Below, in pieces: positions 2,764 to 35,650 of a DNA stretch of 62,813 bases (its first letter is position 1; the number at the start of each line of letters is the position of its first letter). The stretch comes from Verrucomicrobiota bacterium (GTDB taxonomy: Bacteria > Verrucomicrobiota > Verrucomicrobiia > Chthoniobacterales > UBA10450), in NCBI GenBank assembly GCA_003219415.1, contig QHOS01000030.1, forward strand, positions 1 through 62,813, given 5' to 3'. Under the pieces are notes generated by a model, which had not been told where the DNA came from, did not search any database, and saw nothing but the letters and a program-made list of their open reading frames with translations. The position numbers and the translations under genes are program-made.

Positions 2764-3928
2764 CTATCGAACTTTTTCGAGAATTCCTTTTCCTGACGTC
2801 TTGGACGCAGATTTTCCTGTCACACTTACCTGGGTTGTCGAATAGGCTGCTGTGCTGCCATCCTCGTTGACCGTTAAGCTCGCCTGCACTTGCACGCTCG
2901 TGCTTCGGCCAAGTTTATAGGAGCGTTTATAGATTAATGTCCGGTTCTGACGAGAGACCGAGCCGCTGCTCATGTTACTCCAGTGTGTTTCCGATGGGTC
3001 GATGTTCAGCTCGATCTGCGAATCCCATGTGCTTTGCGGCCCGACACTGTGAATGGTTCCCCGCCATGTGCCTGCAAACAATTTTTGTGTGCGTGATGCG
3101 GGGGCAGTCTTCAAGGGTTGTCGCCAAATTGAATTGCCTAAAGTCATATTTGCCAAAGTGACTTCCGGTGTACTCGTGGTCGCTGCCACTGGGGTTGCTG
3201 CCGGCGTGGTTTCAGCTACGGGCTTGAATCCGGCATCGTTCGGGTTTCTGAAAATGCGCCGTAACAAACCAACTGGTTCCGAGAACCGCCAAACCCAGGA
3301 TGCCAGCGCTGCTTAGGACTAACGCTGAGTTTGCAACGCGCTTTCTGCGGGTCCGCCGAATTTTTTCAGGCAACTGCGGATTGCCAGCTTCCGAATTATA
3401 GAGGTTGACCAGCTCAACCCGGAGACCGTGTTTAACCTCGCATTGCCCCAGGTCATGCAAACAAGGTCGCCAACGCTCGTCGTGCTCGAGATCTTCAGCT
3501 ACATGCTTCGAAAGCAAGATGTGGCCAGCGTCTCCGCAATCCATGATGCGCTGGGCGATGTTAATTCCGGCGCCGGTTACGTTCATGCGATTGTTCACAT
3601 CCATGACTTCATTCAGGAGGCCGCTATGGATTCCCATTCGGATAGGGATTGGCGGCGTCTCCTTCTTTAGTGCCTGGCTAAGTTCTAATGCGCATCGCAC
3701 GGGAGATTCAGGGCTATCGCGAAAAACCAGCGCCATCCCATCCCCGGTTGCGACCCGCAGCAGTTTGTTTTTCTTGCTGGCCAGGCGGACCTGCTCCGTT
3801 CCCTGTACAAGCTCATTCAATCGGCGAACCACTCTCGTTTGGTCGTTAACGAGCAGTTTCGAATATCCCACCACGTCGATGAACAGGACGTGGCCGATTC
3901 GGAATCTGGGGGTCAGGTTCGTTGGCAT
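2764..3928 (-). pseudogene. Membrane cyclase-like protein, split by a frameshift
   Basis: The first frame (3928 to 3212) encodes a class III nucleotide cyclase homology domain with FIDVVGYSKLL (metal Asp), TGDGMALVF (second metal Asp) and GAGINIAQR (Asn and Arg of the transition-state site), then one transmembrane helix at about residues 205-227. It stops just after the helix. A second frame (3267 to 2764) continues with a Thr/Pro/Ala-rich linker and a beta-rich domain beginning FAGTWRGTIHSVG, plausibly periplasmic and lipocalin-like. The frames overlap by about 56 bp and differ by one base in phase. Unlike its paralogs at 11, 21 and 33 kb it has no TolB or TPR part. A sequencing error, a true mutation, or re-initiation at a TTG near 3267 are all possible. 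Confidence 0.65.
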
Positions 3929-11136: not shown

Positions 11137-13512
11137 TTAGTCTTTCGGCGCAAGGGAGGCCACAAGTTTTTCGAAACGCGGGTCGCCGCGGAGCGGATCC
11201 CAGATTGGCTGGAGCTTCAAAAGACCGTAGCTTAGATACGTCGGCAAACGCTCCACGGCTTCTATCTGCGCGATAGCCAGATCCTTCTCGCCGGTCCAGA
11301 CGTAGATCTGCGCGAGATTGACAGCCAGCACCACGCCGTCGATCGCATCCTTGGAAGGGGGTAGGAGTTCGCACGCATGGCGACCCTCGCGTAGAGCCTC
11401 CTCTTTTCGGCCCAATCCGGCATCAATCATTCCTAGAAAACTAACTGCCGGCGCAAATTCTGGGTCGCGCTCGACGGTTGCAGCAACTTCGGCACGCGCA
11501 ACGTTAAAGGCGCTCTTGGCTTTCTCCAGATCGCCTTCGCAGATTGCAATGACGCCTTCAAAGTAAGCGTGCGGGTAATTAACAGCGATATTTACCGAAC
11601 CGCCTCGCGGGTAATGCTTCAATCCGCGAGCAAAGGCTTCCGGGGTGCGCTCGCAGATTGTGTAGTTAATGTCATCAGCTTCTGCGGCCTTTTTGGGGTC
11701 CGTGGCAGTCAGTTTTGCCATCAGAGCTTGGTATGGTCGAAGATCGGCTTTCCAGTCTACGGCGACCAAAGCTTTTAGCCCTTGGGTGAGTCCATCGTTA
11801 GGAACAAGGGCAAGCACGCGATCATAAACATGCGCTTCATCCTGGTAGCGGCGCCGTGGTTGGTACGTGAGCGCCAGTTGCTGAAGTATGTGCACGTTTC
11901 GCGGGTCAAGCTCGGCGGCGCGTTCGAGACTGCGCGTTGCCTCTTCCCAATCTCCTCCACGCCGCAGAACGTAACCGCTCACTTCGAGAACCTGCGCGCT
12001 GTTCGGCAGTTTTTTTTGCGCTATAGCTAATTCGCTACCAGCGCGTCGGTAATCACGTAACGACTCGTAGTAATAGTTTCCCCAGGTAAGGTGAACCTCA
12101 CTGGCATCAGGCTCGTAGCGCGACGCGGCTTCGACCGCCGAATACGATTTCTCGAGTCTCTCCGGCGTGTGATCGTACCCGGCGGTATACATCCGCGCGT
12201 GAAGTTGCGAAAGCAAACACCACGCATTCACGAAATGTTGATCGCGCGCGACCGCCTCCTCCAATAGCATCACCGCCCTAGCTAGGTTTTGCTGCGAGGC
12301 AACCGGGTCGGTCAGGTCGACGACGAGCTCCTTAGCACGCGTATAGAGATCGTAGGCAAAGACATCGTAAGTGGGGCGCTTTTCGATCGCCGCTTTTTCA
12401 CCAGGCGAAAGTTTGACCTGCAACTCGTCGGCAATTGCTTTGGCGATGTCGCTTTGAATGACAAAGATATCGGCCAAATCGCGGTCGTACGTTTGCGCCC
12501 AGACGTGGGTGTCGTTGCGTGCGTCAATGAGCTGCGCGTTCACGCGCACTTTGCCGCCCTCGCGCTGAACACTGCCTTCCAGAAGATTGGCAACACCCAA
12601 AGCCTGAGCGATGGCGCGTGCATTGCGCGCGATCCCCGCCTTGTATTGCATGACCGAGGTTCGGCTGATCACCTTTAGATCAGCAATTCTGGCGAGGTCC
12701 GTCAGGATCTCATCCTGCACGCCGTCGGCAAAGAAGGCGTTCTGCGGGTCCGGACTAAGATTTTGAAACGGTAGCACGGCGATGCTTTTAACTGGGATGG
12801 TCGCGAAATCGTTTGCGCGGCGCTGGTGAAAAACCCAGTAACCAATGCCGAGCACGGCCGCAGCCACGATGAAGGTTGCTACCAGGATAGGCTTACGTCC
12901 GTCGCGGCTAGCTCTAGCTTGTTCGCGTTTTGCTTGCCTAATCTTCTCAGGAACATCCGCGTTTCCGATGCTGTCGCCGTAAAGGTTGACCAGCGAAATT
13001 CGAGCGCCATGCTTAACTTCGTATTCGCCCAACTCGTGTAAATAAGGCCGCCAGCGTGCGTAGTGCTCGAGGTCTTCAGCGACGTGTTTGGAAACCAAAA
13101 TGTGACCGGCATCGCCGCAATCCATTACGCGTTGCGCCAAGTTGATTCCCGCTCCGGCAACATTCGCTCGATTGTTGACATCCGTAATCACATTGACTGG
13201 ACCGCTATGGATTCCCATCCGCAGTCGCAGCTTCGGATACTTCTTCACCGCGTGCGCGATCTCGAGGGCGCACTGCGCAGGCGTTTCGGCGGCATCGCGA
13301 AAAACTAACGCGACGCCATCGCCAGTGGGTAATGAGACCAATCTGCCTTGTTCTTCCGCAACCCGGACCTGCTCGCTCGTGGCGACTACCTCCTTCAGCT
13401 CACGAATGAGCTCGCTCTGTTCACCGATGAGCAGCTTTGAATAGCCGACGATGTCAATGAAGAGAACATGTCCGATCTCGAATTTCGGATCGGTCGTAGC
13501 ATCCGCATCCAT
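11137..13512 (-). CDS. Membrane cyclase-like / TolB-like / TPR protein (paralog B)
   Basis: The frame can extend to a TTG at 13572, but ATG 13512 (MDADATTDPKFEIGHVLF) starts just before the domain as in the paralogs. Order: class III cyclase homology domain (LFIDIVGYSKL, PTGDGVALVF, GAGINLAQR), a transmembrane helix (ILVATFIVAAAVLGIGYWVF), a TolB/FlgO-like domain (IAVLPFQNLSPDPQNAFFAD, LLEGSVQREGGKVRVN), then about eight TPRs. Both metal Asp and the Asn/Arg pair are present. The Lys normally three residues before GDG and the Asp three before the Asn are absent, so normal ATP/GTP selection cannot be assumed. The cyclase part should be cytoplasmic and the TolB/TPR part outside the membrane. It is related to the genes at 21.1 and 33.3 kb. 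Confidence 0.85.
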   Translation of the reverse strand: MDADATTDPKFEIGHVLFIDIVGYSKLLIGEQSELIRELKEVVATSEQVRVAEEQGRLVSLPTGDGVALVFRDAAETPAQCALEIAHAVKKYPKLRLRMGIHSGPVNVITDVNNRANVAGAGINLAQRVMDCGDAGHILVSKHVAEDLEHYARWRPYLHELGEYEVKHGARISLVNLYGDSIGNADVPEKIRQAKREQARASRDGRKPILVATFIVAAAVLGIGYWVFHQRRANDFATIPVKSIAVLPFQNLSPDPQNAFFADGVQDEILTDLARIADLKVISRTSVMQYKAGIARNARAIAQALGVANLLEGSVQREGGKVRVNAQLIDARNDTHVWAQTYDRDLADIFVIQSDIAKAIADELQVKLSPGEKAAIEKRPTYDVFAYDLYTRAKELVVDLTDPVASQQNLARAVMLLEEAVARDQHFVNAWCLLSQLHARMYTAGYDHTPERLEKSYSAVEAASRYEPDASEVHLTWGNYYYESLRDYRRAGSELAIAQKKLPNSAQVLEVSGYVLRRGGDWEEATRSLERAAELDPRNVHILQQLALTYQPRRRYQDEAHVYDRVLALVPNDGLTQGLKALVAVDWKADLRPYQALMAKLTATDPKKAAEADDINYTICERTPEAFARGLKHYPRGGSVNIAVNYPHAYFEGVIAICEGDLEKAKSAFNVARAEVAATVERDPEFAPAVSFLGMIDAGLGRKEEALREGRHACELLPPSKDAIDGVVLAVNLAQIYVWTGEKDLAIAQIEAVERLPTYLSYGLLKLQPIWDPLRGDPRFEKLVASLAPKD

Positions 13513-13577
13513 GAGCACGTTGAAAATATCAAAAACTGCCCGATGTAGAAGTTTTCTGTTCCCCAACTCCAATCGCT

Positions 13578-17747: not shown

Positions 17748-18326
17748 GTGGCGCGAAAAAAGCCTATAAGTAGGATCCTCGTTTCACGGAATACTCTTAC
17801 TTTAAAGGAGTGTACGTTCATAATTGATCTTTACGATCGCTATTCCGAGCTATCACTTAGGAGAGATTATAGTCGTCGGCCCCTTCTCCATTATTACACG
17901 CTTCGAGACGTGGACAGCGAGTCAGCTAGCTGGATGTATCGTGTAAGCGTGCGATGCAAAGAAAAGATCGAGATCGATCTTCGTACTCCGAAATTATTTG
18001 TCGAATCGTTGTTCCTGGCGTGTTTATTACCGGGAGATTCGCATATTCCCCATGCGGACAATGAGCGAAGAAAACATGGGCGATGGGTTCCGAATCACAC
18101 CCCTCAACGAGATTACACAGGACTTGTTTATCTGAATGACGACTTCACGGGAGGTGAATTGGTCTTTCCAGATCGTGATGTAGTTATCGTCCCGAAGCCA
18201 GGTTTATTCATTGGGTTTCCTAGTAATCATAAATTTGTGCATGCTGTCCCGAAGGTTCTTTCTGGAAAACGATACTCTCTGCCAGTCTGGTTTACGCTGA
18301 ATCCAACAAAAGCCATGCAAGTTTGA
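17748..18326 (+). CDS. 2-oxoglutarate/Fe(II)-dependent oxygenase, prolyl-hydroxylase-like
   Basis: The product has 192 residues from a GTG start. It shows the facial triad of the double-stranded beta-helix: HADN (His-x-Asp) at about residue 101, and a distal HAVPKVLSGKRYSL with the second His and the basic residue that binds the 2-oxoglutarate carboxylate. Between them DYTGLVYLNDDFTGGELVFP is the typical core of prolyl-4-hydroxylase-like enzymes. It uses O2 and 2-oxoglutarate to hydroxylate a protein, peptide or small molecule; the substrate is unknown. The next gene begins 11 bp after its stop, so the three genes 17748-19946 look like one operon. Confidence 0.85.
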   Translation: MARKKPISRILVSRNTLTLKECTFIIDLYDRYSELSLRRDYSRRPLLHYYTLRDVDSESASWMYRVSVRCKEKIEIDLRTPKLFVESLFLACLLPGDSHIPHADNERRKHGRWVPNHTPQRDYTGLVYLNDDFTGGELVFPDRDVVIVPKPGLFIGFPSNHKFVHAVPKVLSGKRYSLPVWFTLNPTKAMQV

Positions 18327-18337
18327 TCCCAATAACA

Positions 18338-19135
18338 ATGGAAAGAAGCCGCGTCCTCGTAGCAAACTGGTTCAATTATCCGCAGTATTACGACATTGCT
18401 TACCAAGCCCACACCCGGCGGGAGGCCGACTTCATCGAAGCCGCATGCCGCAAGTATTGTCCCTTCGCGCCTCGCCGGTTCTTGGAGCCGGCCTGCGGCA
18501 GTGGACGACTAATCACCGAGTTGGCGGCCCGAGGTTACCAAGTGACCGGATTCGATCTGAGCCAACCGGCGTTAACGTACCTTCGACGGCGGGTTGCACG
18601 GCGGCTGCTCCACGCTGAGACATTCGAGGCGCAGATGTCCAATTTTCGCCTCGGTCGACTGGTTGATGCGGCCTACTGTACCGTCAACACGTTTCGCCAC
18701 TTGTTGACGGAGCAGGCCGCGCGCGGCCACTTGGAGTGTGTTGCCGGGAGTCTTCGTTCTGGCGGCATTTACCTCCTGGGCTTGCATCTGTTGCCATTGG
18801 ACACCGACCCAGAGGACGACGCGCGCTGGACGCAGTGGCGAGGAGAGACAAAAGTGACTGTAACGCTGCGCATGCTGCGCACCGATCTCCGCCACCGGCT
18901 CGAGAACCTTCGGGTCTGCCTGCTTGTGCGCCGCGGGTCGAAGGAACTTCGCCTGCGGCACGAATTTCAGCTCCGCACATATACGGCAAGGCAATTTCGA
19001 CGGCTGCTCGGTTCGGTTCCGTCGCTGGAACTGTGCAACATCTACGATTCCCGGTACGACATTGAGCAGCCATTCGCCCTGAATGATAAGGTGGCTTACT
19101 GTGTGTTTGTGTTAAGGCGACGACTGCCACGGTAG
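18338..19135 (+). CDS. SAM-dependent class I methyltransferase
   Basis: ATG 18338 (MERSRVLVANWFNYPQYYDI) is chosen over an overlapping TTG at 18323. The Rossmann motif I is LEPACGSGRLITELA and motif II is YQVTGFDLSQPAL, whose Asp should bind the ribose of SAM. LVDAAYCTVNTFRHLL is the motif IV region seen in small-molecule methyltransferases. The C-terminal half is beta-rich with RTYTARQFRRLLGS, as in that group. The gene lies between a 2OG oxygenase and a DUF6065-like gene, so it may act on the same substrate. There is no sign of a specific acceptor. Confidence 0.85.
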   Translation: MERSRVLVANWFNYPQYYDIAYQAHTRREADFIEAACRKYCPFAPRRFLEPACGSGRLITELAARGYQVTGFDLSQPALTYLRRRVARRLLHAETFEAQMSNFRLGRLVDAAYCTVNTFRHLLTEQAARGHLECVAGSLRSGGIYLLGLHLLPLDTDPEDDARWTQWRGETKVTVTLRMLRTDLRHRLENLRVCLLVRRGSKELRLRHEFQLRTYTARQFRRLLGSVPSLELCNIYDSRYDIEQPFALNDKVAYCVFVLRRRLPR

Positions 19136-21131: not shown

Positions 21132-23504
21132 TCACCTCGGCGCGGACGAAGCGACGAGTTTTTGGAATCGCGGATCCTTTCGGAGCGGATCGAACATCGG
21201 ATCGAGCCGGAGCAGCGCAGGAGTGAGCGGCGAGCCTAAAGCCACTAAGCCAGCGTACGGTATCGAGAGTAGTTCCTGTAAAGCTGCGATAGCGCGGTCG
21301 GACTCTCCCATGCACGCCGCCACTCGGGCGAAGATCTCGATCGGAATGGGACCAGTTAAGGCGTCCTTCTCGATCGGATTCGCGGCCATGGCCCGTTCCG
21401 ACAGAGCTAACGCGGCGGCCTTGTCACCGAGACCCATATTGGTCAGCGCGAGCTCGCCAATGAGGAGATAGTTTTCCGGCTGTTCTTTGAGGAAAGGTTC
21501 CATTTCGCTGCGCGCCTGTCGCCAACTTTGCTGGGCGGCGACATGGTCGCCCGCGACTTCTTGTGCCCAACCTAACCATAAGTGCAGCTCCCCGTTGAAG
21601 TAACCTAACGCTGGATCAGGCTTGGTAAGTATCTCCTTTATCGCTGGGATTACCGGTCCAGGACGGCGCTCGAGGATCGCTTGGTAAACTTGTGTTAGCA
21701 AGGCCCCGGTGTTGTCGCTGCTCGGATGCAGTGGAGCGAGGAGCGCAGCAGCCCGCGGCAGGTCGCCCTGCGCTTGTGCGATACCCGCCTTTAATACAAG
21801 GGTATCCAGGTCGTCCGGCGTAATGTCGAGAACCTGATCAAGCTTTCGCAGCGCTTCCGGGAAACGACGGAGACAGATATAGGTACTCGCGTGCTGGGTA
21901 AGTAGGTAGACGTCGCGAGGGTCAAGCTTCTCGGCTTCTTTGAAGTACAATTCGCTCCGGTCCCACTTGCCTCGTCTCCGTGCTATATAGGCCAGCGATT
22001 CAGGAATCCGGCTGCTATTCGGTAGGAGCTGGCGCGCTTGTTCAAAGTAGCGCACTGCGGTGTCGTAATCCTTCAGGCAAGCGTAGTAGTAAGATCCCGT
22101 GGCCAAGAGGGCCTCGCCGAGATTGGGCTGAAGGGTGAGCGCGGTTTCGGCTGCCTGCCGCGCCTCTTCACGCAGCGCGACAGTTGGTTGAAGACTCTGT
22201 GTGCCGTAAGCGCGTGAATTAACGAATGAAAACAGTGCCCAGGCAAGCGCGAAGTTCGGATCCAACCGCACCGCTTCTCTGAGATATTTCTGTGCGCCAA
22301 GGGCATTGGCGGTTGAGGGGATAGTTTTCAGTGTGTAAGCGAGACCACGCAAGTAAGCGTCGTAAGCCTCAGAATTGTCGGTGGCCTTGGCGGCAATCTC
22401 TCGCTCTTCTCGACCCGTGAGTTTCGCTCGCAACTGGTCGGCGACAGCTTTGGCAATATCACTTTCAACTGAAAAGATGTCGGTCAGTTTGCGATCAAAC
22501 GTATCGGCCCAGAGATGGGAATCATTGGCTGCTTTGATTAGCTGCACGTTCACGCGCACGGCGCCGCCGCTCCTCTGTACGCTTCCTTCCAGGATGTGAG
22601 CAACGCCAAGTTCCCTGGCGATCGACGGCAAATTTTCGGGTGCACTTTTGTAATGCCGCGTCGATGTGCGCGAGATCACCGTGAGATCGGCGATTTTCGA
22701 TAATCGCGTCACAATTTCGTCCTGGATGCCGTCGGCGAAGTAGGCGTTGTCAGGATCGTGACTCAGATTTTCAAACGGAAGGACAGCAATGCTTTTTTCC
22801 ATCGCAGGTAGCGCGGATCGCTCGCGATAACGCGAAAAGATTGCAATCGCAGCAATGACTACCGCGAGCACAAGCAATGCTGCCGCCGTCCCCGCCCAGC
22901 GTAACCGCGTCAGGCGTTTCTGCACAGTCTCAAACCTCTGCGGCAGCTTCGGATTGCCGAATTGATCGCTATAGAGGTTCACGACCGAGACGCGCACTCC
23001 ATGCTTCACTTCGCACGAACCAAGATCGTGCAAGAGCGGTCGCCACTTCTGGTATTCTTCCAGATCTTCGGCGACGTGTTTGGAGAGAAGAATGTGGTCG
23101 GCGTCCCCGCAACCCATTACCCGTTTGGCCATGTTGATCCCAGCGCCCGCGAGATTGGCCCGTTCGTTTACATCCACAATCCCGCTGACGGGTCCGCTGT
23201 GGATTCCCATCCGGAGTTGCAGGCGAGAGTGTTCCTTGAGCGCGCAGCTGACTTCCACTGCGCATTGCGCAGGCGCTTCCGGGCTCGTGTAAAAGACAAG
23301 TGCCATCCCGTCGCCGGTCGGGATTCTAAGCAAACGGCTTGCAACTTCGGCTCGTTGAAATTGCTCGGACGCGCGAACAATCCGGGTTAGTTCCTCAACC
23401 GCCGCGTGCTGGTCGCTAATCGAAAGCTTCGTGTAGCCAACAATGTCGATGAACAAAACATGGGCGATTTCGAGCTGGATCTCTTTCTTGCTCTCAATGG
23501 ACAT
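21132..23504 (-). CDS. Membrane cyclase-like / TolB-like / TPR protein (paralog C)
   Basis: The product has 790 residues. The cyclase homology domain is at about 10-185 (VLFIDIVGYTKLSISDQ, RIPTGDGMALVFYTSPEAPA, AGAGINMAKRVMGCGDADHI), a transmembrane helix at about 215-240, a TolB/FlgO-like domain (SIAVLPFENLSHDPDNAYFA, HILEGSVQRSGGAVRVN) and then TPRs to the end. It is roughly 80-85% identical to the 33281 gene in the cyclase part, and about 115 bp upstream is also conserved. Metal and transition-state residues are present; the Lys and Asp that select adenine or guanine are not. It is divergently placed on the far side of the peptide-export operon from paralog D and may supply the ligand for its cNMP domains. 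That link is an inference. Confidence 0.88.
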   Translation of the reverse strand: MSIESKKEIQLEIAHVLFIDIVGYTKLSISDQHAAVEELTRIVRASEQFQRAEVASRLLRIPTGDGMALVFYTSPEAPAQCAVEVSCALKEHSRLQLRMGIHSGPVSGIVDVNERANLAGAGINMAKRVMGCGDADHILLSKHVAEDLEEYQKWRPLLHDLGSCEVKHGVRVSVVNLYSDQFGNPKLPQRFETVQKRLTRLRWAGTAAALLVLAVVIAAIAIFSRYRERSALPAMEKSIAVLPFENLSHDPDNAYFADGIQDEIVTRLSKIADLTVISRTSTRHYKSAPENLPSIARELGVAHILEGSVQRSGGAVRVNVQLIKAANDSHLWADTFDRKLTDIFSVESDIAKAVADQLRAKLTGREEREIAAKATDNSEAYDAYLRGLAYTLKTIPSTANALGAQKYLREAVRLDPNFALAWALFSFVNSRAYGTQSLQPTVALREEARQAAETALTLQPNLGEALLATGSYYYACLKDYDTAVRYFEQARQLLPNSSRIPESLAYIARRRGKWDRSELYFKEAEKLDPRDVYLLTQHASTYICLRRFPEALRKLDQVLDITPDDLDTLVLKAGIAQAQGDLPRAAALLAPLHPSSDNTGALLTQVYQAILERRPGPVIPAIKEILTKPDPALGYFNGELHLWLGWAQEVAGDHVAAQQSWRQARSEMEPFLKEQPENYLLIGELALTNMGLGDKAAALALSERAMAANPIEKDALTGPIPIEIFARVAACMGESDRAIAALQELLSIPYAGLVALGSPLTPALLRLDPMFDPLRKDPRFQKLVASSAPR

Positions 23505-24210: not shown

Positions 24211-24412
24211 CCCAAACGAGCTGCCACGGTGCGAAATAAATCCTGCTACCGATTTTGCAGCGTTATCGTGTTTTGCGATTTCCGAGTCTGGAGCGAGCCC
24301 GCCGCCCTTTTACTGTAAGAGTGTTTGTGGAGAGTCGCGGAAGGGATAGATAAAAACCGCACCGCGGGATTGAACCACGGTGCGACTGTTTAACCTTATT
24401 CTTGCTGGTGTT

Positions 24413-24556
24413 TCAGTTACCCGGCTTGGTCTGACCCGCCCCGGTGACGCCGGGGCCCGCGCCGGTGAGGTTCTTGCTGGAGCCGGTGCCACCTTTAGCA
24501 TCTTTTTTTGGCTTCAGGTCGCGAACTTTGATGTTTTTCTTTTTCTTGTCTTGCAT
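24413..24556 (-). CDS. 47-residue double-glycine leader peptide, probable cargo of the C39 exporter
   Basis: ATG 24556 to TGA 24413 encodes a 47-residue peptide. It begins with six Lys/Asn/Asp-rich residues, continues IKVRDLKPKKDAKGG and then has a Gly/Ser/Thr/Asn-rich tail (TGSSKNLTGAGPGVTGAGQT, then KPGN). GG after a charged helical leader is the cleavage signal used by C39 peptidases, and such a peptidase-exporter lies 2.3 kb upstream on the same strand. The predicted mature part has 24 residues, no Cys, and 8 Gly. AAGGA precedes the ATG, and the stop of another small ORF lies 5 bp upstream. No modification enzyme is adjacent, so the mature peptide may be unmodified. Function (bacteriocin, signal or surface peptide) is unknown. 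Confidence 0.65.
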   Translation of the reverse strand: MQDKKKKNIKVRDLKPKKDAKGGTGSSKNLTGAGPGVTGAGQTKPGN

Positions 24557-24561
24557 GTTTG

Positions 24562-24789
24562 TTACTTGTCCTTCGCTGGATTTATGTGGCACCGAACAGC
24601 AATTGATGCTCGCCCGTTTCGTCCTGTATTTGGAATCAGGTCATCCAGACGAATCAATTTATCTTTCCTGCGCTTGGGCCTTTGATTTCCTGACTCTCCG
24701 GCGGGCGCATTCTTTTGCTCTTCGGTGCACTCACTTTGGCTTTCTTTGTTATCAGTATCCGCCCAGTTTAAAGAAAAGCCATCAAACAA
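24562..24789 (-). CDS. Second leader-like small peptide, TTG start
   Basis: The frame is closed upstream by TGA directly before a TTG at 24789 and contains no ATG, so TTG is the only likely start, or the 5' end is lost. The 75-residue product is hydrophilic, then reads KDKLIRLDDLIPNTGRNGRA and ends SIAVRCHINPAKDK. The block IRLDDLIP parallels VRDLKP of the downstream peptide, but the expected GG is replaced by GRNGR. It ends 5 bp before the next ATG, so the two are co-transcribed. It may be a decayed cargo peptide or one cut differently. There is one Cys in the tail. Confidence 0.5.
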   Translation of the reverse strand: MFDGFSLNWADTDNKESQSECTEEQKNAPAGESGNQRPKRRKDKLIRLDDLIPNTGRNGRASIAVRCHINPAKDK

Positions 24790-24930: not shown

Positions 24931-25598
24931 CTACTCTTGGGCCACGCCTCGGAGATGGCGCGCCAGGGTCGAACGAGAAATAGCGAGCAGTTTTGCCGCA
25001 CGACGTTGGGTTTGATTTGCTTGCTCATAAACGACCCGTACGCGTCTTTTCACAGTCACTTGCGAGCGAGAGATCGATACTAGGGGCGCGTTCGTTGTTA
25101 TTGCTGGCCAACGAAGAAACCAATTTACCACCTTTCAGACGCATTCTGATCTGGCTCCAGATCTGGAGGAAAAACGACATGCTCGGGCAGAATTACCGAA
25201 CCATTGCAAAACAGCGTCATGGCTCGCACGGTGTGGCTCAATTCGCGAAGGTTTCCGCGCCACCGATGGTGAAGCAACTTCTCCATCGCTTCGGGACGAA
25301 TTGCCGTGATGCTTTTGCCTTCTTTTAATCCAGCCGCTTTCAACGATCGATGCCGGCAGTTCTTGCAGCCGCTCACGCAGCGGAGGAATGAGCAAGGTGA
25401 GGCCGTTCAGACGCTGATAAAGGTCTTCCCTGAATTTTCCCTGCCGCACTCGTTCCCGCAGCGAGCAGTTTGATGCGCAGATGATCCGCGCGTTGGATGT
25501 GAGCATTCGCTCAGCGCTGCCAGCTGCAAGCAACGCGCCATGGCTTCGTCGCTTGTGGTCAGGTCTTCAATTCTCAGCTTGAAACGCGGCTTTTGCAT
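24931..25598 (-). pseudogene. Eroded sigma-54-dependent transcriptional activator
   Basis: ATG 25598 lies 14 bp after the HlyD stop and opens MQKPRFKLRIEDLTTSDEAM, but Walker A, the GAFTGA loop and Walker B are deleted. The sequence jumps to NARIICASNCSLRERVRQGK and then FREDLYQRLNG, the sensor/arginine-finger part of AAA+ enhancer-binding proteins. A second frame carries HHRWRGNLRELSHTVRAM, and a third ends with the Fis-type helix-turn-helix (RRAAKLLAISRSTLARHL). At least one large deletion and two frameshifts are needed, so it cannot work. Its place inside the operon suggests the export genes were once sigma-54 controlled. Confidence 0.75.
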
Positions 25599-25612: not shown

Positions 25613-26800
25613 TTATTGCTTTATGCTTTCACGCAGCTGTCGAATGGGTTCGAACGCGTATTCAATCAGCGTGCGTCCACCGACGATGATGTGCGCTTGT
25701 CCTCTCATCCCAACTCGCAGAGGTAAAACTTGTCCTGCGTGGGGGGATATCTCATAGCGGTCGAGTGAGCCCAGCGCGACGAAGTGAGAGCCATCAGTGG
25801 TAGTAACCGCTGACGGACTGATCCAATCGAGTTTTCCGGTCACAGCGCCGTAACGCTGGTAAGGAAACGCTTCGAAGAAATACCGCACGCGCTGAGCGAT
25901 GGCGAGTTTCGGGAGGCCGGCTTCGTTTAAGGTCATCCGAGCTCGCGGTTTGGCGTCTTTCCGTGCGAGCTGGCAAAGCACTTGTCCCTGCTGCACAAAA
26001 CTGCCCACGGTTCGCTGGTCCATGGAAGTGATCACACCCTCATATGGACTCCGAACTGTCAGCAAGTTCTGGTGGGTATTTTCGAGGTCTGTTTTCAGAG
26101 CGCCGATCCGCATTTTTAGTTTCTCGATTTCCGACTGCTGCTCAGCCCGTTGACGCGCGTGCTCTGTTTCCATTCGCCCACGGTCGAGATTGACCTGCTG
26201 CACAGTGCGTTGGGCGACACTCAAATCTTTTTCCGAACCGGCTAAATCGAGTTTCAGCTTTACAAGGTCAATTTCCGATTCGCCGCCCAGCTTGGCTAAT
26301 TTCTCCATGCGCGTCACCAGTTCGCGGCTCGTGCTGGCATGATTCTCACGGAACTTTACTTCGCTCTTTGCCTGCTCAATTTCGGCTTTCTTAATCTCGA
26401 GTTGGGCAGCGTAAGCGGTCTCAGATCGAGTGAGGCTTTCTTCTTTCGTGCGTAAATCTTCGGTGAGGGTCCGAAATTGCGTGTCCCAACCGCGGATTTC
26501 GTCGGAGCGCAAAACGAACAACGCTTCGCCCAGTTTAACAGGTTGGCCCTCCTCCACAGCGACGCGACTAATGATGGCTTGCCGAGGCGATTGGATTGGA
26601 TCGGCGCCGGTGGCCGGAATCAGAACGAACTGGCAATAGACGGTTTCCGGTAACCGCATTATGATTGCGACGAGCAGCGCGAACAGAAAGGCCGCCAGCA
26701 ATAGCCAGGCGGTCGAGCGGATGATCCAGGGCGGTGGTTCCTGCGGCAGCATCTCGGATTCCACATCGAGTGAACCGCGTTCGGTTAATTGTGAGCTCAT
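25613..26800 (-). CDS. HlyD-type periplasmic adaptor of the peptide exporter
   Basis: The product has 395 residues. One N-terminal membrane helix (AWLLLAAFLFALLVAIIM) is followed by a biotinyl-lipoyl half (IISRVAVEEGQPVKLGEALF), a long coiled coil at about 110-245 (Glu/Lys/Gln-rich), the second half (LLTVRSPYEGVITSMDQRTV, GSFVQQGQVLCQLA) and a beta-barrel domain. This is the membrane-fusion subunit that links a C39 ABC exporter to an outer-membrane channel. It begins 12 bp after the exporter gene, in one operon. No TolC-like gene is in the window. Length and domain order are normal for bacteriocin-type adaptors. Confidence 0.9.
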   Translation of the reverse strand: MSSQLTERGSLDVESEMLPQEPPPWIIRSTAWLLLAAFLFALLVAIIMRLPETVYCQFVLIPATGADPIQSPRQAIISRVAVEEGQPVKLGEALFVLRSDEIRGWDTQFRTLTEDLRTKEESLTRSETAYAAQLEIKKAEIEQAKSEVKFRENHASTSRELVTRMEKLAKLGGESEIDLVKLKLDLAGSEKDLSVAQRTVQQVNLDRGRMETEHARQRAEQQSEIEKLKMRIGALKTDLENTHQNLLTVRSPYEGVITSMDQRTVGSFVQQGQVLCQLARKDAKPRARMTLNEAGLPKLAIAQRVRYFFEAFPYQRYGAVTGKLDWISPSAVTTTDGSHFVALGSLDRYEISPHAGQVLPLRVGMRGQAHIIVGGRTLIEYAFEPIRQLRESIKQ

Positions 26801-26812
26801 GGAAGAACTGGC

Positions 26813-29800
26813 TCAGATCCCCAGTTGTTGACTGGAAAGGTAATAATATAGACCGCGTTGTGCCATTAAGTCATCGTGCGTACCAATCTCGGCAATGCTT
26901 CCCTGTTCCAGCACCACGATCGAGTGCGCTTCGCGAATCGTACTTAACCGATGTGCGATCACAATCGTGGTGCGACCTGCCATTAACCGACCGAGATTGT
27001 CCTGGATCGCGCGCTCCGATTCTGTGTCGAGCGCGCTCGTTGCCTCATCAAAAATTAACACTGGCGGATTATTATAGATTGCCCGCGCAATTGCGATGCG
27101 CTGCTTCTGGCCACCTGAAAGAGAAAGACCCGATTCGCCAATCTTTGTCTCATAACCAAGCGGAAGACGCATAATGAAACCGTGCGCCGCAGCGGCTTGT
27201 GCGGCGGCAAGCACCCGATCAAGATCTGGCTGCAGATCGCCAAACGAAATATTGCGCGCAATCGTTTCGTTAAACATGTGATTTTCCTGAAGCACTATTC
27301 CGATGTGCCGCCGCACGTCGCGATAATTGAGAGTTTTTAGATCGACATTGTCGAAAAAGATGGTCCCTTCCGTAGGCTCGAGGAGGCCGGCTATTAATTT
27401 AATGAGCGTCGTTTTGCCACAACCGCTGCGACCGACGAATGCCACCATGCGCCCTGGCGCCAGGTCGAGGTTGATGTTCTTTAGAATATCGGGCGATTCG
27501 GGGCCGCCGTATTTGAAACTAACCCCGCGAAGCTGGAGGTGTCCTTCCAGGCTATGCACCGGGACGAGTCGAGAACGATCATGGCCCTGTTCGGGCTCCT
27601 GCTCGAAAATGTCATTCAGCCGATTCAGGAGGACGGCGGCGTTTTGCAGGTTGTCCCAAACTCCGAGCGCGCGCAAAATTCCCGCGTAGGCCATCGCCGT
27701 CAGTGAGCTGAACGCGACAAAACCGCCAACGCTCAAGTGCCCATGAATAACTTGCGTCGCGCCGACCCACAAAAAGATCGCAGTAGAGAGCAGACCGATG
27801 CTTTGCAGAACGCTGTCGTACGACATCACTATAAAGGTCGCCTTGAAAAGTTTTTGTGAGACGGAGAGAAACTCGTTCAGCATGGCGTCACGGAAGGCAC
27901 TCTCGGCGGATGCCGCTTTCACTGCCTCGATTCCTTTGATGGCATCGATTTGATGCGAACTGTATTTGCCCTGGCTTTCTTCCACCCCGTGATACAGGGG
28001 ACGAAGCACTTTTACCGAAAAAATCATTAGTCCCACGTAAAGCGGCGTTGTTGCCAGAAACGCGAGGGTGAGCAATGGACTGTACATCGCCATCAAAATC
28101 ACTGCGCCGACGAGAAAAACTGCTGCCAGCAAAGCGCCAACTCCCTGTTGGACGGCAAATTGCCGAACCTGCCGCGCACCGTCCAGCCGGCGTTGAATGT
28201 CGCCTGTCCGGCGGCTCGTGAAATAAGTCATCGGCAGGGAGAGAAGCTTCCGGCTCAAAAAATCGAGAACTGTCGTATCAAGGCGCACGGCTGCAAACGC
28301 CAGCAGATATTCCTGGGCGAGAGTGGAGAGCTGCACGAAGACGATGGCCGCGAGCACGCCGAGTAGGATCGTCTTCAAAAGGCCGACATCGTTTTCGACA
28401 ATGACCTTGTCGACCACCATCTGGGTGAACACTGGGAAGAGCAGTTGAAGGAAACTGACAGCGACGGCCAGCCCCAGCACCTGGAGCAGGATCACCTTAA
28501 ACCGTGCCAGAAACGGAAGAACCCACGCCAGCGTTGGCTTGGTTTCCGGAGCTTGTTCGAATGCGGGCGTGTAATCGAACAGCGCCGCGTAGCCTGTCCA
28601 CTTCGCTTCAAATTCGGGCCGCGGAAATTTCCGCAACCCAACCGCGGGATCGGCCACGCGCACAAACTGCTCATCGACATCGTAGAGCACGATCCAGTGG
28701 TTGCCCTCCCAGTGCACTATCGCTGGCAGCGGCATGAGCGAGAGATTGCGTAGCGAGATCTTCAATGCGCGCGCCGCCAAGCCAAGTTCAGTTGCGGCGC
28801 GAGAAAGCGCCTTGAGGCTGGTGCCGTCCGTAGCCGTGTGACAAAGCTGCCGAATCCGTGCCAGGCTTACCTTGCGGCCAAAATACCGGCAGATCATTCC
28901 GAGACTGGCTGCGCCACAATCCATCTCGTCGATCTGCATGATGTGGTCGACTTTGCGGATTCGCTTTCCGCGTTTGCGGAACAAGCCCTGCTCGTTAGCG
29001 AAGGGAGCTTCTTTATCTTCGGCCCCGGCTGGAGGATGTTCACGATCCAGCTGAACCTTGTCGTGGACCTGTGTTTCGGCAGGCAGCAATTCGGTCGTGA
29101 AATCAAGCGGAATACGCGCTTCGGTTTTCGCCTGATAAAGCGCGAGCCGTTCGCTCACGAGCCTATCGAATTCCGGAAACCGTCGCCGCAAGTCCTGCAC
29201 GGACTTGGGTTCAAGAGAGAGCAATTGGCAATCTGTGAATGCCTCGACGGAGGTCGCACGCGGAGAGCCGTTCAAGACCGACAGTTCACCGAAAAAGTCA
29301 CCCTCGCGATAAAACGCGAGATTGCGCGTTTGTCCGTCGATTCCAGCAAAGGCCCGCGCGCGTCCCTTCTGCATTATGTAAAGAGGACCGGCATCGTCTC
29401 CTTCACGGATAATTAGATTGCCTTTTACGATCGTGACAGGTTTCAACCTGTCGATCATGGCGCGCAACACGGGAGTCGGAAGCCGGCCAAAATTGCTGAA
29501 CTGATAGAGGAAACTTTGCAGAGCTCTGTCCCGGCCGGTGGTCTCGACATATTGCTTCAAATCGGGTACGCGACGGACGAGCTCCGTAAAATCATCGCGA
29601 TCGAGCCGCAAAACATCTACCGCTGTGCTGCAGCGCACCGTCGCGTTTCGGGCTCCTCCCTCAGACAATGCGGCTTCTCCAAACGAGTCACCGGGTTTCA
29701 ACACGCCCAGCGGGATTTCCTCACCACCTGGCTTGATCTTCAGAGCGCGTGCCCGCCCCCTGGTCAAAACGTAAAAGGCATCGGCCGGATCGTCCTGTTT

Positions 29801-29926
29801 TACGATCACATCACCGAATTCATAGTGCTCTCCCTCCAAGAGCGGCTCAATCGCGGCGAAATGTTCATCGGCAAGAAAACGGAAAACCGATGAACGCCGC
29901 AGAATTTCGGTGTCTTGAACTTTCAT
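26813..29926 (-). CDS. C39-peptidase ABC exporter with two N-terminal cNMP-binding domains
   Basis: The product has 1037 residues. Residues about 10-125 and 137-255 are cyclic-nucleotide-binding folds with phosphate-cassette sequences FGEAALSEGGARNATV and FGELSVLNGSPRATSV. After a linker comes a C39 peptidase with Cys at about 337 (QIDEMDCGAASLGMICRYFG), His (EGNHWIVLYD) and Asp (VADPA), then six membrane helices and a nucleotide-binding domain with GRSGCGKTT, LSGGQKQR and VLIFDEATSALD. All catalytic motifs are intact. Such proteins cut leader peptides after GG and export the rest. Its start overlaps the upstream stop (ATGA), so translation is coupled. The cNMP domains suggest gating by a nucleotide made by the flanking cyclase-like proteins; this is inference. 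Confidence 0.95.
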   Translation of the reverse strand: MKVQDTEILRRSSVFRFLADEHFAAIEPLLEGEHYEFGDVIVKQDDPADAFYVLTRGRARALKIKPGGEEIPLGVLKPGDSFGEAALSEGGARNATVRCSTAVDVLRLDRDDFTELVRRVPDLKQYVETTGRDRALQSFLYQFSNFGRLPTPVLRAMIDRLKPVTIVKGNLIIREGDDAGPLYIMQKGRARAFAGIDGQTRNLAFYREGDFFGELSVLNGSPRATSVEAFTDCQLLSLEPKSVQDLRRRFPEFDRLVSERLALYQAKTEARIPLDFTTELLPAETQVHDKVQLDREHPPAGAEDKEAPFANEQGLFRKRGKRIRKVDHIMQIDEMDCGAASLGMICRYFGRKVSLARIRQLCHTATDGTSLKALSRAATELGLAARALKISLRNLSLMPLPAIVHWEGNHWIVLYDVDEQFVRVADPAVGLRKFPRPEFEAKWTGYAALFDYTPAFEQAPETKPTLAWVLPFLARFKVILLQVLGLAVAVSFLQLLFPVFTQMVVDKVIVENDVGLLKTILLGVLAAIVFVQLSTLAQEYLLAFAAVRLDTTVLDFLSRKLLSLPMTYFTSRRTGDIQRRLDGARQVRQFAVQQGVGALLAAVFLVGAVILMAMYSPLLTLAFLATTPLYVGLMIFSVKVLRPLYHGVEESQGKYSSHQIDAIKGIEAVKAASAESAFRDAMLNEFLSVSQKLFKATFIVMSYDSVLQSIGLLSTAIFLWVGATQVIHGHLSVGGFVAFSSLTAMAYAGILRALGVWDNLQNAAVLLNRLNDIFEQEPEQGHDRSRLVPVHSLEGHLQLRGVSFKYGGPESPDILKNINLDLAPGRMVAFVGRSGCGKTTLIKLIAGLLEPTEGTIFFDNVDLKTLNYRDVRRHIGIVLQENHMFNETIARNISFGDLQPDLDRVLAAAQAAAAHGFIMRLPLGYETKIGESGLSLSGGQKQRIAIARAIYNNPPVLIFDEATSALDTESERAIQDNLGRLMAGRTTIVIAHRLSTIREAHSIVVLEQGSIAEIGTHDDLMAQRGLYYYLSSQQLGI

Positions 29927-31014
29927 TTTTTGCCAGGTGACATGGCGCCCAGCCGCCCCTGCGTATATTTGCTCATAAGCTCAGAGAAATGCCGGTCGAG
30001 TAGTCGCTGATCGATCCGCGATTTAACGGTTGGGTCGTCCGCTTGCGGCTCAATTTTGTTGACGACACGACACAGTTCAAATCCGTCACCGCGCGCAGTC
30101 GGTTCGAGGACATTCCCCGCCGAAACGCTGAGGAATCTCTGCTGGGCGTCCACGGGAAGATCTTCTAAAAGAAAGTGCGAACGTCGGTAAGGGTAACGTC
30201 CCTCGGTTGCAACTTCCTCCATTGACATCCCATCTTGTTGCACGCAAAACAGCGCTTCCTTGGCGGCATCCTGGGATTCTAGCTCGATCACTTCGATTTC
30301 GAATCGCGTCAGCGGCAATCGTAAAGGCATTAATTCGTATTGACGCGCCTCAGGGACAAGCAGCCTTTCGCAATGTGTCCGGTATGCTGCCTCGATTGCG
30401 AGCATTTCATCCAGCCATTTCGAATCACGCCCCAATTTCTTCAGCCAATTCGGCCGTTGTCCCGGATTAACGCTGTTCCGATGCAAGAATTTCCGCTCTT
30501 CGGCCGCAATCGCCTCTGGGGCCGGTTCTTGTCCCGCGCATCGCGCCGCGAGGCGCGCCATTAAATCGGTCGTGATTCGGTCCAAATCTCCCGATAAAAT
30601 CAATTCCGTCAGGAACGATCGGCGTAGGTCGACCGACGCGCACTGATATTCCACTTCATCCGGAACGACGCTTTCGCGAATCGCGGTGGCATAATATTGA
30701 CGAGTAAAATAGTCGCTGAAGTCATCGAAAGTCAGGCCACGATTTGCCAGCCATGCTTCCGTTTCTTCAGCAGTGATCAGATCGTATTCGTAACGAAAAG
30801 CTTCTGCCGCACTAGAAATTGCGGACTCGTCCAAATCTAAGTCTAGCTCATCCGCGCGTTTTTCGGCTTCGACTTCATCAAGAAATTCTTTCCACTTTAC
30901 CACCAGCTCGCCCCTGAAAATGGCTGCATCGATTGCATCACGTGCCGTATATTCCTGTTCTCCGCACGCGCACACTATCAAGTCAAAGCCTGAAGTTGGC
31001 TCCGTGGTCGCCAT
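29923..31014 (-). CDS. PpiC/SurA-related protein of the export operon
   Basis: The frame extends to 31125, but ATG 31014 (MATTEPTSGFDLIVCACGEQ) fits better. The N-terminal part has short helices ending in a WKEFLDEVEAEKRADELDLD stretch typical of the SurA/PpiC chaperone helices. The C-terminal third (LFCVQQDGMSMEEVATEGRY, then FLSVSAGNVLEPT, GFELCRVVNKIEP) follows a parvulin-like order. It has no signal peptide, so it is probably cytosolic. It resembles the PpiC-related peptide-maturation proteins found beside C39 exporters and may hold the precursor peptide or proline-isomerise it. Its stop overlaps the exporter start by 3 bases. The catalytic residues of parvulins cannot be confirmed by eye. 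Confidence 0.7.
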   Translation of the reverse strand: MATTEPTSGFDLIVCACGEQEYTARDAIDAAIFRGELVVKWKEFLDEVEAEKRADELDLDLDESAISSAAEAFRYEYDLITAEETEAWLANRGLTFDDFSDYFTRQYYATAIRESVVPDEVEYQCASVDLRRSFLTELILSGDLDRITTDLMARLAARCAGQEPAPEAIAAEERKFLHRNSVNPGQRPNWLKKLGRDSKWLDEMLAIEAAYRTHCERLLVPEARQYELMPLRLPLTRFEIEVIELESQDAAKEALFCVQQDGMSMEEVATEGRYPYRRSHFLLEDLPVDAQQRFLSVSAGNVLEPTARGDGFELCRVVNKIEPQADDPTVKSRIDQRLLDRHFSELMSKYTQGRLGAMSPGKK

Positions 31015-33280: not shown

Positions 33281-35650
33281 ATGTCCGTTGAGATCAAAAA
33301 AGAGATCCAGTTGGAGATCGCCCATGTTTTGTTCATCGACATCGTTGGCTACTCAAAGCTTTCGATTGATGACCAGCATGCGGCGATTGAGGAACTAACC
33401 AAGATTGTTCGCGCGTCCGAGCAGTTTCAACGAGCCGAAGCCGCGAACCGTTTGATTAGGATCCCAACCGGCGATGGGATGGTGCTTGTCTTTTACACCA
33501 ATCCGGAGGCGCCTGCGCAGTGCGCGGTGGAGATCAGCTGCGCGCTCAAGGAACATCCGCGTCTACAACTTCGGATGGGAATCCACAGCGGGCCGGTTAG
33601 CGGCGTTGTTGATGTAAATGAAAGGGTCAATCTCGCGGGCGCTGGAATCAACATGGCAAAACGGGTGATGGATTGCGGCGACGCAGGGCACATCCTCCTT
33701 TCCAAGCATGTCGCCGAAGATCTCGAAGAATACGAGAAGTGGCGACCGTTTCTGCACGATCTCGGCACATGCGAAGCAAAACATGGCGTGCGCGTCTCGG
33801 TCGTGAACCTCTATGACGATCAATTCGGCAATGCGACGCTGCCGCGGAAACTCGAGACCGTCCGGAAACGCCGGGCCCGCGTGCGCTGGGCTGAAGTGGC
33901 CGTTGCGCTGCTCGTGCTTGCCGCGATTATTGCTGCCTTCGTCTTGCTTCTGCGGAGACCGACGCGCTCGGCCTTGGCGATTGTGGAAAAAAGTATCGCC
34001 GTGCTGCCATTTGAAAATCTGAGCCGCGATCCCGACAACGCTTACTTTGCTGACGGAATCCAGGACGAGATTCTGACGCGCCTAGCGAAGATTGCCGACT
34101 TGAAGGTGATCTCGCGTACATCCACGCAGCATTACAAAAGCGCGCCGGATAACCTGTCCGAGATCGGCAAGCAACTTGGGGTTGCGCACATCCTGGAAGG
34201 AAGTGTGCAGAAGAGCGGCGATGCCGTGCGCGTGAATGTGCAGCTAATCAAAGCGGCCAATGATTCTCATCTTTGGGCCGATACCTTTGATCGCAAACTG
34301 ACTGACATCTTTTCAGTGGAGAGTGAGGTGGCCAAAGCCATCGCCGAGCAGTTGCGAGCGAAACTCACCGGTCAGGAAGAGCAAGTCATTGCCGCCAAAC
34401 CGACAGACAACCCTGAGGCTTACGATGCTTACCTGCGCGGGTTGGCTTATAACCTGAAAACCACCAACACAACCGCCAACTCTCTAGGCGCACAGAAATA
34501 TCTGAAAGAAGCAGTAAGATTAGCCCCGAAGTTTGCCCTTGCCTGGGCGCTGCTGTCATACGTGGACGCGCGCGGCTACCTCAACCAGGCTCTTCAACCA
34601 ACGGTCGCCCTGCGTGAAGAGGCGCGGCAGGCAGCCGAAACCGCGCTGGGCCTTCAGCCCAATCTCGGCGAAGCAGTGTTGGCCAAAGGATATTACTACT
34701 ACGCCTGCTTAAAGGATTACGACACCGCGGTGCGTTATTTTGAGGAAGCACGTCAGTTCCTGCCCAACAGCAGTCTGATTCCTGAACAGCTAGCCTATGT
34801 CACGCGGCGAAGAGGCCAGTGGGACCAGAGCGAGAGTTACTTCAACGAAGCCGAGCGGCTCGACCCGCGCAACGTTTCGCTGCTCACCCAGCAGGCGCTT
34901 TCCTATATCTGGCTTCGTCGTTTCCCCGAAGCACTGCGGAAGCTTGATCAGGTTCTTAATATCACACCGGACGACGTGGATGCCCTTGTGCTAAAGGCGG
35001 GCATCGCACAAGCTGAGGGCGATCTGCCGCGGGCCGCGGCGATCCTGGCTCCGCTGCATCCGAATGCCGACGACGCCCAGGCCTTGGAAACACAAGCCTA
35101 CCAAGCGATCCTGGAGGGCCGCCCTGGACCAATCATTCCTCAGTTAAAGGAAATATTGGCCAACCCCGATCAAGCATTGGGTTATTACAACGGCGAACTG
35201 CGCTTTTGGTTAGGCTGGGCGCAGGAAGTTGCCGGCGACCGTGCCGCCGCCCAGGAAAGTTGGCGTCAGGCGCGCAGCGAACTGGAACGCTTCCTCAAGG
35301 AACAGCCGGAAAACTATCTCCTCATTGGAGATCTTGCGCTGACCAATATGGGCCTCGGTGACAAGGCCGCTGCGTTGGCTCTAACTGAACGGGCCCTGGC
35401 CGTGCTTCCGATCGAGAAAGACGCTGTAGATGGTCCCGCTCCGATTGAGATCCTTGCCCGGGTAGCAGCAGGAATGGGGGAACCCGAACGTGCCATCGTC
35501 GCTTTGCAGAAACTGCTCTCGACACCGTATGAAGGCCTACTGGCTTTCAACCTGCCGCTTACTCCTGCGCTACTACGTCTCGATCCGATGTTCAATCCGC
35601 TCCGGAACGATCCGCGCTTCCAGAAGCTCGCATCGAGCGTGTCGAAATAG
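33281..35650 (+). CDS. Membrane cyclase-like / TolB-like / TPR protein (paralog D)
   Basis: The product has 789 residues, with the same order as paralog C: cyclase homology domain (VLFIDIVGYSKLSIDDQ, RIPTGDGMVLVFYTNPEAPA, AGAGINMAKRVMDCGDAGHI), membrane helix (VAVALLVLAAIIAAFVLLL), TolB/FlgO-like domain (SIAVLPFENLSRDPDNAYFA, HILEGSVQKSGDAVRVN) and about seven TPRs ending near PMFNPLRNDPRFQKL. Substrate-selecting Lys and Asp are missing here too. It reads away from the export operon, opposite to paralog C, so the pair forms a roughly 2.4-kb inverted repeat around the operon. The TPR part probably binds protein partners outside the membrane. Confidence 0.88.
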   Translation: MSVEIKKEIQLEIAHVLFIDIVGYSKLSIDDQHAAIEELTKIVRASEQFQRAEAANRLIRIPTGDGMVLVFYTNPEAPAQCAVEISCALKEHPRLQLRMGIHSGPVSGVVDVNERVNLAGAGINMAKRVMDCGDAGHILLSKHVAEDLEEYEKWRPFLHDLGTCEAKHGVRVSVVNLYDDQFGNATLPRKLETVRKRRARVRWAEVAVALLVLAAIIAAFVLLLRRPTRSALAIVEKSIAVLPFENLSRDPDNAYFADGIQDEILTRLAKIADLKVISRTSTQHYKSAPDNLSEIGKQLGVAHILEGSVQKSGDAVRVNVQLIKAANDSHLWADTFDRKLTDIFSVESEVAKAIAEQLRAKLTGQEEQVIAAKPTDNPEAYDAYLRGLAYNLKTTNTTANSLGAQKYLKEAVRLAPKFALAWALLSYVDARGYLNQALQPTVALREEARQAAETALGLQPNLGEAVLAKGYYYYACLKDYDTAVRYFEEARQFLPNSSLIPEQLAYVTRRRGQWDQSESYFNEAERLDPRNVSLLTQQALSYIWLRRFPEALRKLDQVLNITPDDVDALVLKAGIAQAEGDLPRAAAILAPLHPNADDAQALETQAYQAILEGRPGPIIPQLKEILANPDQALGYYNGELRFWLGWAQEVAGDRAAAQESWRQARSELERFLKEQPENYLLIGDLALTNMGLGDKAAALALTERALAVLPIEKDAVDGPAPIEILARVAAGMGEPERAIVALQKLLSTPYEGLLAFNLPLTPALLRLDPMFNPLRNDPRFQKLASSVSK

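What the first reader, a model, noticed from the sequence alone, without database searches (positions are those of the whole stretch)
24413..24556. Overlooked 47-residue GG-leader peptide downstream of the exporter
Seen: a small ORF on the operon strand encodes IKVRDLKPKKDAKGG followed by a 24-residue Gly-rich tail. Known: C39 peptidases cut after GG in a helical leader. Inference: this is the natural cargo. The tail has no Cys and no recognised modification site, so it would be an unmodified, Gly-rich secreted peptide.
Basis: partly seen in the sequence, partly recalled or inferred. Interest (0 to 1): 0.75.

Follow-up and report, generated by a model that had tools for sequence, protein, structure and literature searches.

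The report
Conserved Gly-rich cargo of cNMP-PCAT exporter
A tiny overlooked gene in a soil Verrucomicrobiota bacterium belongs to a family of short peptides with a fixed "GG" address tag and fast-changing glycine-rich ends, always encoded beside the same export machine; it is almost certainly that machine's natural cargo, but what the exported piece does is unknown.

Summary
In detail: window 24413-24556 (-) encodes MQDKKKKNIKVRDLKPKKDAKGG|TGSSKNLTGAGPGVTGAGQTKPGN (47 aa, 24-aa tail). It is not a chance ORF. Among 213 genomes of the order, 52 carry relatives and 48 the cNMP-C39-ABC exporter, 44 both; in 28 of 28 same-contig pairs a leader peptide lies downstream on the same strand. In 46 distinct relatives D-L-K-P..[DE]..GG is invariant while codons vary; tails are hypervariable, Gly-rich (23.5%), Cys-free, some tandem-repeated.

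The locus is a conserved cassette: cytosolic SurA/parvulin-like partner, double-cNMP PCAT, HlyD, sigma-54 activator, peptide A (constant tail), peptide B (this one).

Best reading: B is the remaining encoded cargo, cut after GG by C39 and exported with HlyD/TolC. The leader is non-canonical: Pro -8, no hydrophobic -7/-12, conserved hydrophobics at -10/-13/-15. Cleavage, export and function are inferred; an extracellular matrix/adhesive role is my leading guess, with bacteriocin or signal as alternatives. I found no description in the papers searched. New variant of a known kind.

The parts
24413..24556 (-). Peptide B gene (the finding): 23-aa leader ending GG plus 24-aa Gly-rich tail
   Evidence: family alignment A1
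24355..24387 (-). Terminator-like hairpin (13 pairs, T-run) directly after peptide B; likely operon end
   Evidence: consensus match only
24562..24734 (-). Remnant of peptide A gene (GTG start, leader ...KLIRLDDLIP...): frameshifted, GG lost, 19-nt deletion in tail
   Evidence: intact in relatives
24750..24769 (-). Damaged copy of a conserved sigma-54-like element (relatives TTGGCAyGaATacTGaT; here 2 nt deleted)
24931..25598 (-). Remnant of sigma-54 activator gene (AAA+ with GAFTGA in relatives, Fis-type HTH); large internal deletion and frameshifts
25613..26800 (-). HlyD-type membrane fusion protein
26813..29926 (-). PCAT exporter: two cNMP-binding domains, C39 peptidase, ABC membrane and ATPase domains (1037 aa); Gln/Cys/His/Asp of C39 present
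29923..31014 (-). Cytosolic SurA/PrsA-like chaperone with parvulin domain, distant relative of TIGR04500 (conserved start at 31014)

Best explanation
The peptide is a secreted-cargo precursor of the adjacent T1SS-type PCAT. Proposed steps: the operon is made (in relatives probably under the sigma-54 activator); the soluble SurA/parvulin-like partner binds the lysine-rich precursor and keeps it unfolded; the C39 domain of the PCAT reads the non-canonical leader (I/V -15, V -13, D -11, L -10, K -9, P -8, D -5, A/V -4) and cuts after Gly -1; the ABC channel, with HlyD and a TolC-like porin encoded elsewhere, exports the tail; cNMP domains gate activity by a nucleotide signal. The 24-residue tail is a disordered Gly/Thr/polar peptide; I favour an extracellular matrix or adhesive role (about 0.35) over bacteriocin or signal. 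Shown here: gene, family, cassette, selection. Inferred: binding, cleavage, export, gating, function.
For: Invariant leader with synonymous codon variation and hypervariable tails; cassette order conserved across genus and other genera; co-occurrence 44 of 48/52 genomes and 28/28 same-contig pairs co-oriented 4.5-7.2 kb downstream; sole C39 domain found in this genome; catalytic Gln/Cys/His/Asp align to LahT/PCAT1/ComA; SurA/PrsA fold of partner, pLDDT 90; TolC-family genes and rpoN in the genome; exporter genes stay under purifying selection (dN/dS about 0.10-0.15 to G028) after peptide A and activator were lost, with peptide B unchanged.
Against: No expression, cleavage or secretion data. 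Leader lacks the -7 and -12 hydrophobic residues required by LahT. Activator, its likely promoter element and peptide A are broken in this genome, so expression of B here is uncertain. Some orphan leader peptides lie away from any exporter, and 8 genomes have peptide hits without a detected PCAT (incomplete MAGs may explain part).
Confidence: 0.82

Rival explanations
1. The precursor is a RiPP: the tail is modified (for example on Ser/Thr) by an enzyme encoded elsewhere before export, with the TIGR04500-like protein as the partner of that enzyme, as MirC is for the graspetide synthetase MirB.
For: Partner is a distant TIGR04500 relative; MirC is essential for rosaritide synthesis (PMC13097080).
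Against: No modifying enzyme recurs in the flanks of about 30 loci; tails have no Cys and 2.3% Asp+Glu, and this tail has neither Asp nor Glu, which excludes graspetide rings here; hypervariable low-complexity tails fit poorly with one specific enzyme.
Confidence: 0.12
2. The mature tails are bacteriocins or strain-specific signals, their hypervariability reflecting an arms race or specificity code, rather than matrix material.
For: PCAT cargo is often bacteriocin or pheromone (PMC6363468); leader fixed, tail hypervariable even between close species.
Against: No recurring immunity, receptor or kinase gene in the flanks; tails lack Cys and are poor in aromatic and hydrophobic residues (20% AVILMFWY), unlike membrane-active bacteriocins; low-complexity tandem repeats.
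Confidence: 0.3
3. In this genome the module is decaying and peptide B is no longer expressed; it is a remnant.
For: Activator, promoter-like element and peptide A are broken, and the lesions are largely shared with G028.
Against: Exporter, HlyD and partner still show dN well below dS since the split from G028, and peptide B is identical in both and in frame relative to G034.
Confidence: 0.2
4. Chance ORF or repeat without function.
For: Short, low-complexity tail, not in Pfam or NCBIfam.
Against: Family-wide conservation with synonymous codon variation and fixed operon position.
Confidence: 0.01

Closest known systems
Double-glycine leader peptides processed by C39 PCAT/AMS transporters (LahA/LahT, ComC/ComA, PCAT1 substrate)
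   Same: GG at the cut site, adjacent C39-ABC exporter with intact catalytic residues, conserved leader and variable cargo, multiple precursors per exporter
   Different: Invariant Pro -8, polar/charged -7 and -12, hydrophobic residues at -10/-13/-15; not matched by any NCBIfam or Pfam model
EbfG1-4 / PteB of Synechococcus elongatus (PMC4997328, PMC9981879)
   Same: Several small GG proteins encoded together, PCAT-exported in a Gram-negative-type envelope; EbfG proteins are matrix components and EbfG1-3 form amyloid
   Different: No sequence relation tested; the present tails are shorter, Gly-rich and lack the amyloid hotspot reported for EbfG; exporter here carries cNMP domains and a SurA-like partner
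HetC of Nostoc (PMC10986499)
   Same: cNMP-C39-ABC architecture of about 1040 aa; its authors leave the substrate open
   Different: Two cNMP domains and an adjacent HlyD here; HetC has one annotated cNMP domain, binds ppGpp, and has no neighbouring HlyD; direct sequence relationship not tested
Rosaritide-type cassettes with TIGR04500 partner MirC and a PCAT (PMC13097080)
   Same: SurA-like cytosolic partner encoded next to a PCAT and a precursor
   Different: No graspetide synthetase; partner scores far below the TIGR04500 cut-off (48 vs 180 bits) and carries a parvulin domain that the paper reports absent in MirC

Membership tests
Double-glycine (GG) leader peptides, broad sense | Leader ending in GG (GA/GS) followed by cargo | tested here: met
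   GG invariant in 46 of 46 B peptides; note that GG was part of the search pattern used to collect them
Double-glycine (GG) leader peptides, broad sense | Cognate C39-containing ABC exporter | tested here: met
   28 of 28 same-contig pairs, same strand; sole C39 domain found in genome
Double-glycine (GG) leader peptides, broad sense | Cleavage after GG by the C39 domain | not testable with these tools
   needs biochemistry; catalytic residues are present
Canonical ComA/LahT recognition pattern | Hydrophobic -4, -7, -12 with Glu -8 | tested here: not met
   -8 Pro invariant, -7 K/R/A/S/N/T, -12 R/Q/K against PMC6363468
Graspetide with TIGR04500 partner | Partner above TIGR04500 cut-off | tested here: not met
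   48 bits against 180
Graspetide with TIGR04500 partner | Asp/Glu acceptors in core | tested here: not met
   no Asp or Glu in this tail; 2.3% over 46 tails
Graspetide with TIGR04500 partner | ATP-grasp synthetase in the cluster | tested here: not met
   no recurring enzyme in flanks of about 30 loci; whole genome not searched for it
SurA/PrsA-like chaperone (partner protein) | SurA-type chaperone core plus parvulin domain | tested here: met
   AF2 pLDDT 90.3; Foldseek E 4.5e-6 to SurA, parvulin domain Z 11.0 at 2.1 A
HetC-like cNMP-PCAT | cNMP, C39 and ABC domains in one chain | tested here: met
   Pfam PF00027 with two stretches, PF03412, PF00664, PF00005
HetC-like cNMP-PCAT | Orthology to HetC | not tested
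   HetC sequence was not compared
EbfG-like matrix proteins | Secreted, matrix-located, amyloid-forming | not testable with these tools
   analogy only
Sigma-54 promoter before peptide A | -24 GG and -12 GC elements | tested here: inconclusive
   TTGGCA part conserved at correct spacing, -12 part reads TG[AGT]T instead of TTGC

The most novel reading that the evidence does not exclude
A previously undescribed, nucleotide-gated peptide secretion module of Chthoniobacterales, with its own leader code (DLxPxxDxxGG) and dedicated cytosolic SurA-like chaperone, exports one constant peptide and one hypervariable low-complexity peptide that together build a lineage-specific extracellular material or identity tag.
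Probability: 0.3. Interest if true: 0.8.

Novelty: new variant of a known kind. Interest (0 to 1): 0.6.

Why it matters
cNMP-containing PCATs such as HetC have an activity but no known substrate; here a whole clade of such exporters comes with its encoded cargo, so leader recognition, cleavage and nucleotide gating become directly testable with short synthetic peptides. The leader breaks the canonical C39 recognition rule, and the fixed-leader/hypervariable-tail pattern would be a new secreted peptide family in Udaeobacter-like bacteria, a soil group known mostly from metagenome assemblies. No Pfam or NCBIfam model catches these genes, so annotation pipelines are likely to miss them.

Tried and rejected
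Chance ORF: rejected by conservation. The 59-aa GTG-start version: sequence upstream of the ATG is not conserved as peptide B but belongs to the peptide A remnant. Link to the class III cyclase-TPR genes flanking the cassette (attractive because of the cNMP domains): 18 cyclase domains in the genome but a homologue lies near the cassette in only a few relatives and not at the same site in the nearest one, so rejected as a fixed part. The prolyl-4-hydroxylase-like and methyltransferase genes at 17.7-19.1 kb: not found beside relatives' cassettes. Literature search for the motif found nothing relevant (only open-licence papers are held). Small peptides near the distant cNMP-PCATs of other classes (L120-L122): none recognised by pattern, though G080 holds an A-like peptide elsewhere. 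PDB sequence search with the partner protein gave only chance hits.

Full report
Observation. The ORF is present exactly as reported: 47 residues on the minus strand, leader MQDKKKKNIKVRDLKPKKDAKGG, tail TGSSKNLTGAGPGVTGAGQTKPGN. Neither Pfam nor NCBIfam knows it. The window is contig C139 of a 3.6 Mb, 96.5% complete assembly; relatives with organism names are Verrucomicrobiota, Chthoniobacterales, including a Candidatus Udaeobacter MAG, and one MAG (AV125) carries the identical peptide.

Conservation. Within the genus 27 of 35 genomes have leader-like hits, several with multiple copies. A profile from 19 relatives hits 52 of 213 genomes of the order but only 5 of 388 genomes sampled across the phylum. 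The residues D-11, L-10, K-9, P-8, G-2 and G-1 are the same in all 46 distinct sequences collected, and position -5 is always Asp, although codons vary (six Leu codons, four Pro codons). The collecting pattern itself demanded DLKP, an acidic -5 and GG, so the codon variation, not the invariance, is the independent evidence of selection; peptides gathered more loosely show the same core. The 46 tails average 24 residues, contain no Cys, 23.5% Gly and 2% aromatic residues; 13 show tandem periodicity at p<0.01, for example repeats of GTQPT, HAAQG or GQHT. So the leader is fixed and the tail is free to change in length and sequence.

Cassette. Relatives share one gene order on one strand: SurA-like partner, PCAT, HlyD, sigma-54 activator, peptide A, peptide B in one to several copies. 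No other gene recurs specifically across the loci, in particular no modifying enzyme. PCAT and peptide B co-occur in 44 genomes, against 4 with PCAT only and 8 with peptide only (Fisher p about 1e-32, inflated by shared ancestry), and on 28 contigs holding both, the peptide hit is downstream on the same strand at 4.5-7.2 kb (in a few of these the hit is peptide A or a truncated B). The C39 domain of this PCAT is the only C39 match in the genome. Its Gln, Cys, His and Asp align to LahT.

Peptide A. In relatives a second precursor precedes B: GTG start, leader KLIRLDDLIPKQDVxGG, tail HQLLFGATDTTQT, in which both leader and tail are conserved. An A-like peptide, with I.L.DL.P...V.GG....FG..D in common, occurs in a genome of another class (G080), which hints that A is the older cargo.

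State of this genome. Compared with G034, this genome and G028 share a large internal deletion and frameshifts in the activator, a 2-nt deletion in the conserved TTGGCA element about 35 nt before peptide A, and frameshift, GG loss and a 19-nt deletion in peptide A; this genome has an extra 1-nt insertion in peptide A and another in the activator. Peptide B shows only in-frame indels relative to G034 and is identical in G028. PCAT, HlyD and the partner differ from G028 by 23 synonymous and 10 non-synonymous codons, dN/dS about 0.10-0.15. The exporter has thus remained under constraint after peptide A and the activator were lost, which points to B as the remaining cargo. Counts are small.

Partner protein. 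A 12-sequence alignment gave a model with pLDDT 90.3, matching SurA and PrsA (Foldseek E 4.5e-6) and a parvulin domain at residues 236-321 (Z 11.0, 2.1 A, 85 residues). It has no evident signal peptide at the conserved start. It is only a distant relative of TIGR04500 (48 bits, cut-off 180), whose member MirC is an essential partner in rosaritide synthesis (PMC13097080).

Mechanism. I propose: expression under the sigma-54 activator in intact relatives (rpoN is present; the -12 half of the element is not canonical), binding of the precursor by the partner, recognition of the leader through -10/-13/-15 rather than -7/-12, cleavage after GG, export through PCAT, HlyD and one of several TolC-family proteins, with nucleotide gating through two cNMP domains. 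Recognition, cleavage, gating and export are inference. For function I favour matrix or adhesive material by analogy with EbfG (PMC4997328, PMC9981879), at about 0.35.

Comparison. The module works like a GG-peptide PCAT system. It differs from the canonical kind in leader code (LahT is impaired by Lys at -7; PMC6363468), cNMP domains, partner, and hypervariable low-complexity cargo. HetC shares the cNMP-C39-ABC architecture and lacks a known substrate (PMC10986499); orthology was not tested. Verdict: new variant of a known kind, interest 0.6.

Noticed in passing
window 21132-23504 (-), 33281-35650 (+), 11137-13572 (-), 52800-54926 (-), 3212-3928 (-): Five class III cyclase/TPR-type paralogues in one window, two of them (80% identical) flanking the exporter cassette; 18 cyclase domains in the whole genome, 4 of them on this contig. 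The flanking arrangement is absent in the nearest relative, suggesting recent duplication or mobility.
   Followed up: partly
L043 (G008:C79), L046 3731-3922, L047 13517-13708, L004, L014, L016, L022, L025: Orphan 'type C' precursors (INVVRSVWRRLKKAK...RDLEPEKDVKGG + GGVTGESKPITGGTGSTGSH), mostly away from the PCAT, with a more constant tail; possible in-trans cargo of the same exporter.
   Followed up: partly
L047 2710-2925, 3543-3746, 12405-12629, 12925-13134; L045 8561-8764: 'Type D' precursors (KSAKTRLSDLTPKKDARGG + Pro/Tyr-rich tails) clustered around the cassette in G024 and G023.
   Followed up: no
L123 9817-10002 (-) (G080, another class of the phylum): A-like peptide MKQKNKESVNIKLNDLLPKNNVKGGQEETVFGIYDAVKTK...; a genome of the same genus (G355) has a neighbouring PCAT and partner gene but no recognised peptide nearby.
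   Followed up: partly
L120, L121 (G160, G355): Distant cNMP-PCATs (37-41% identity) preceded by a relative of the SurA-like partner that keeps the LITAEETE motif, in a different family of the phylum: the partner-exporter pair is older than peptide B.
   Followed up: partly
window 17748-19135 (+): Protein that looks like a prolyl-4-hydroxylase-type 2OG oxygenase, followed directly by a methyltransferase-like gene (by eye, not family-searched); not found beside relatives' cassettes.
   Followed up: partly
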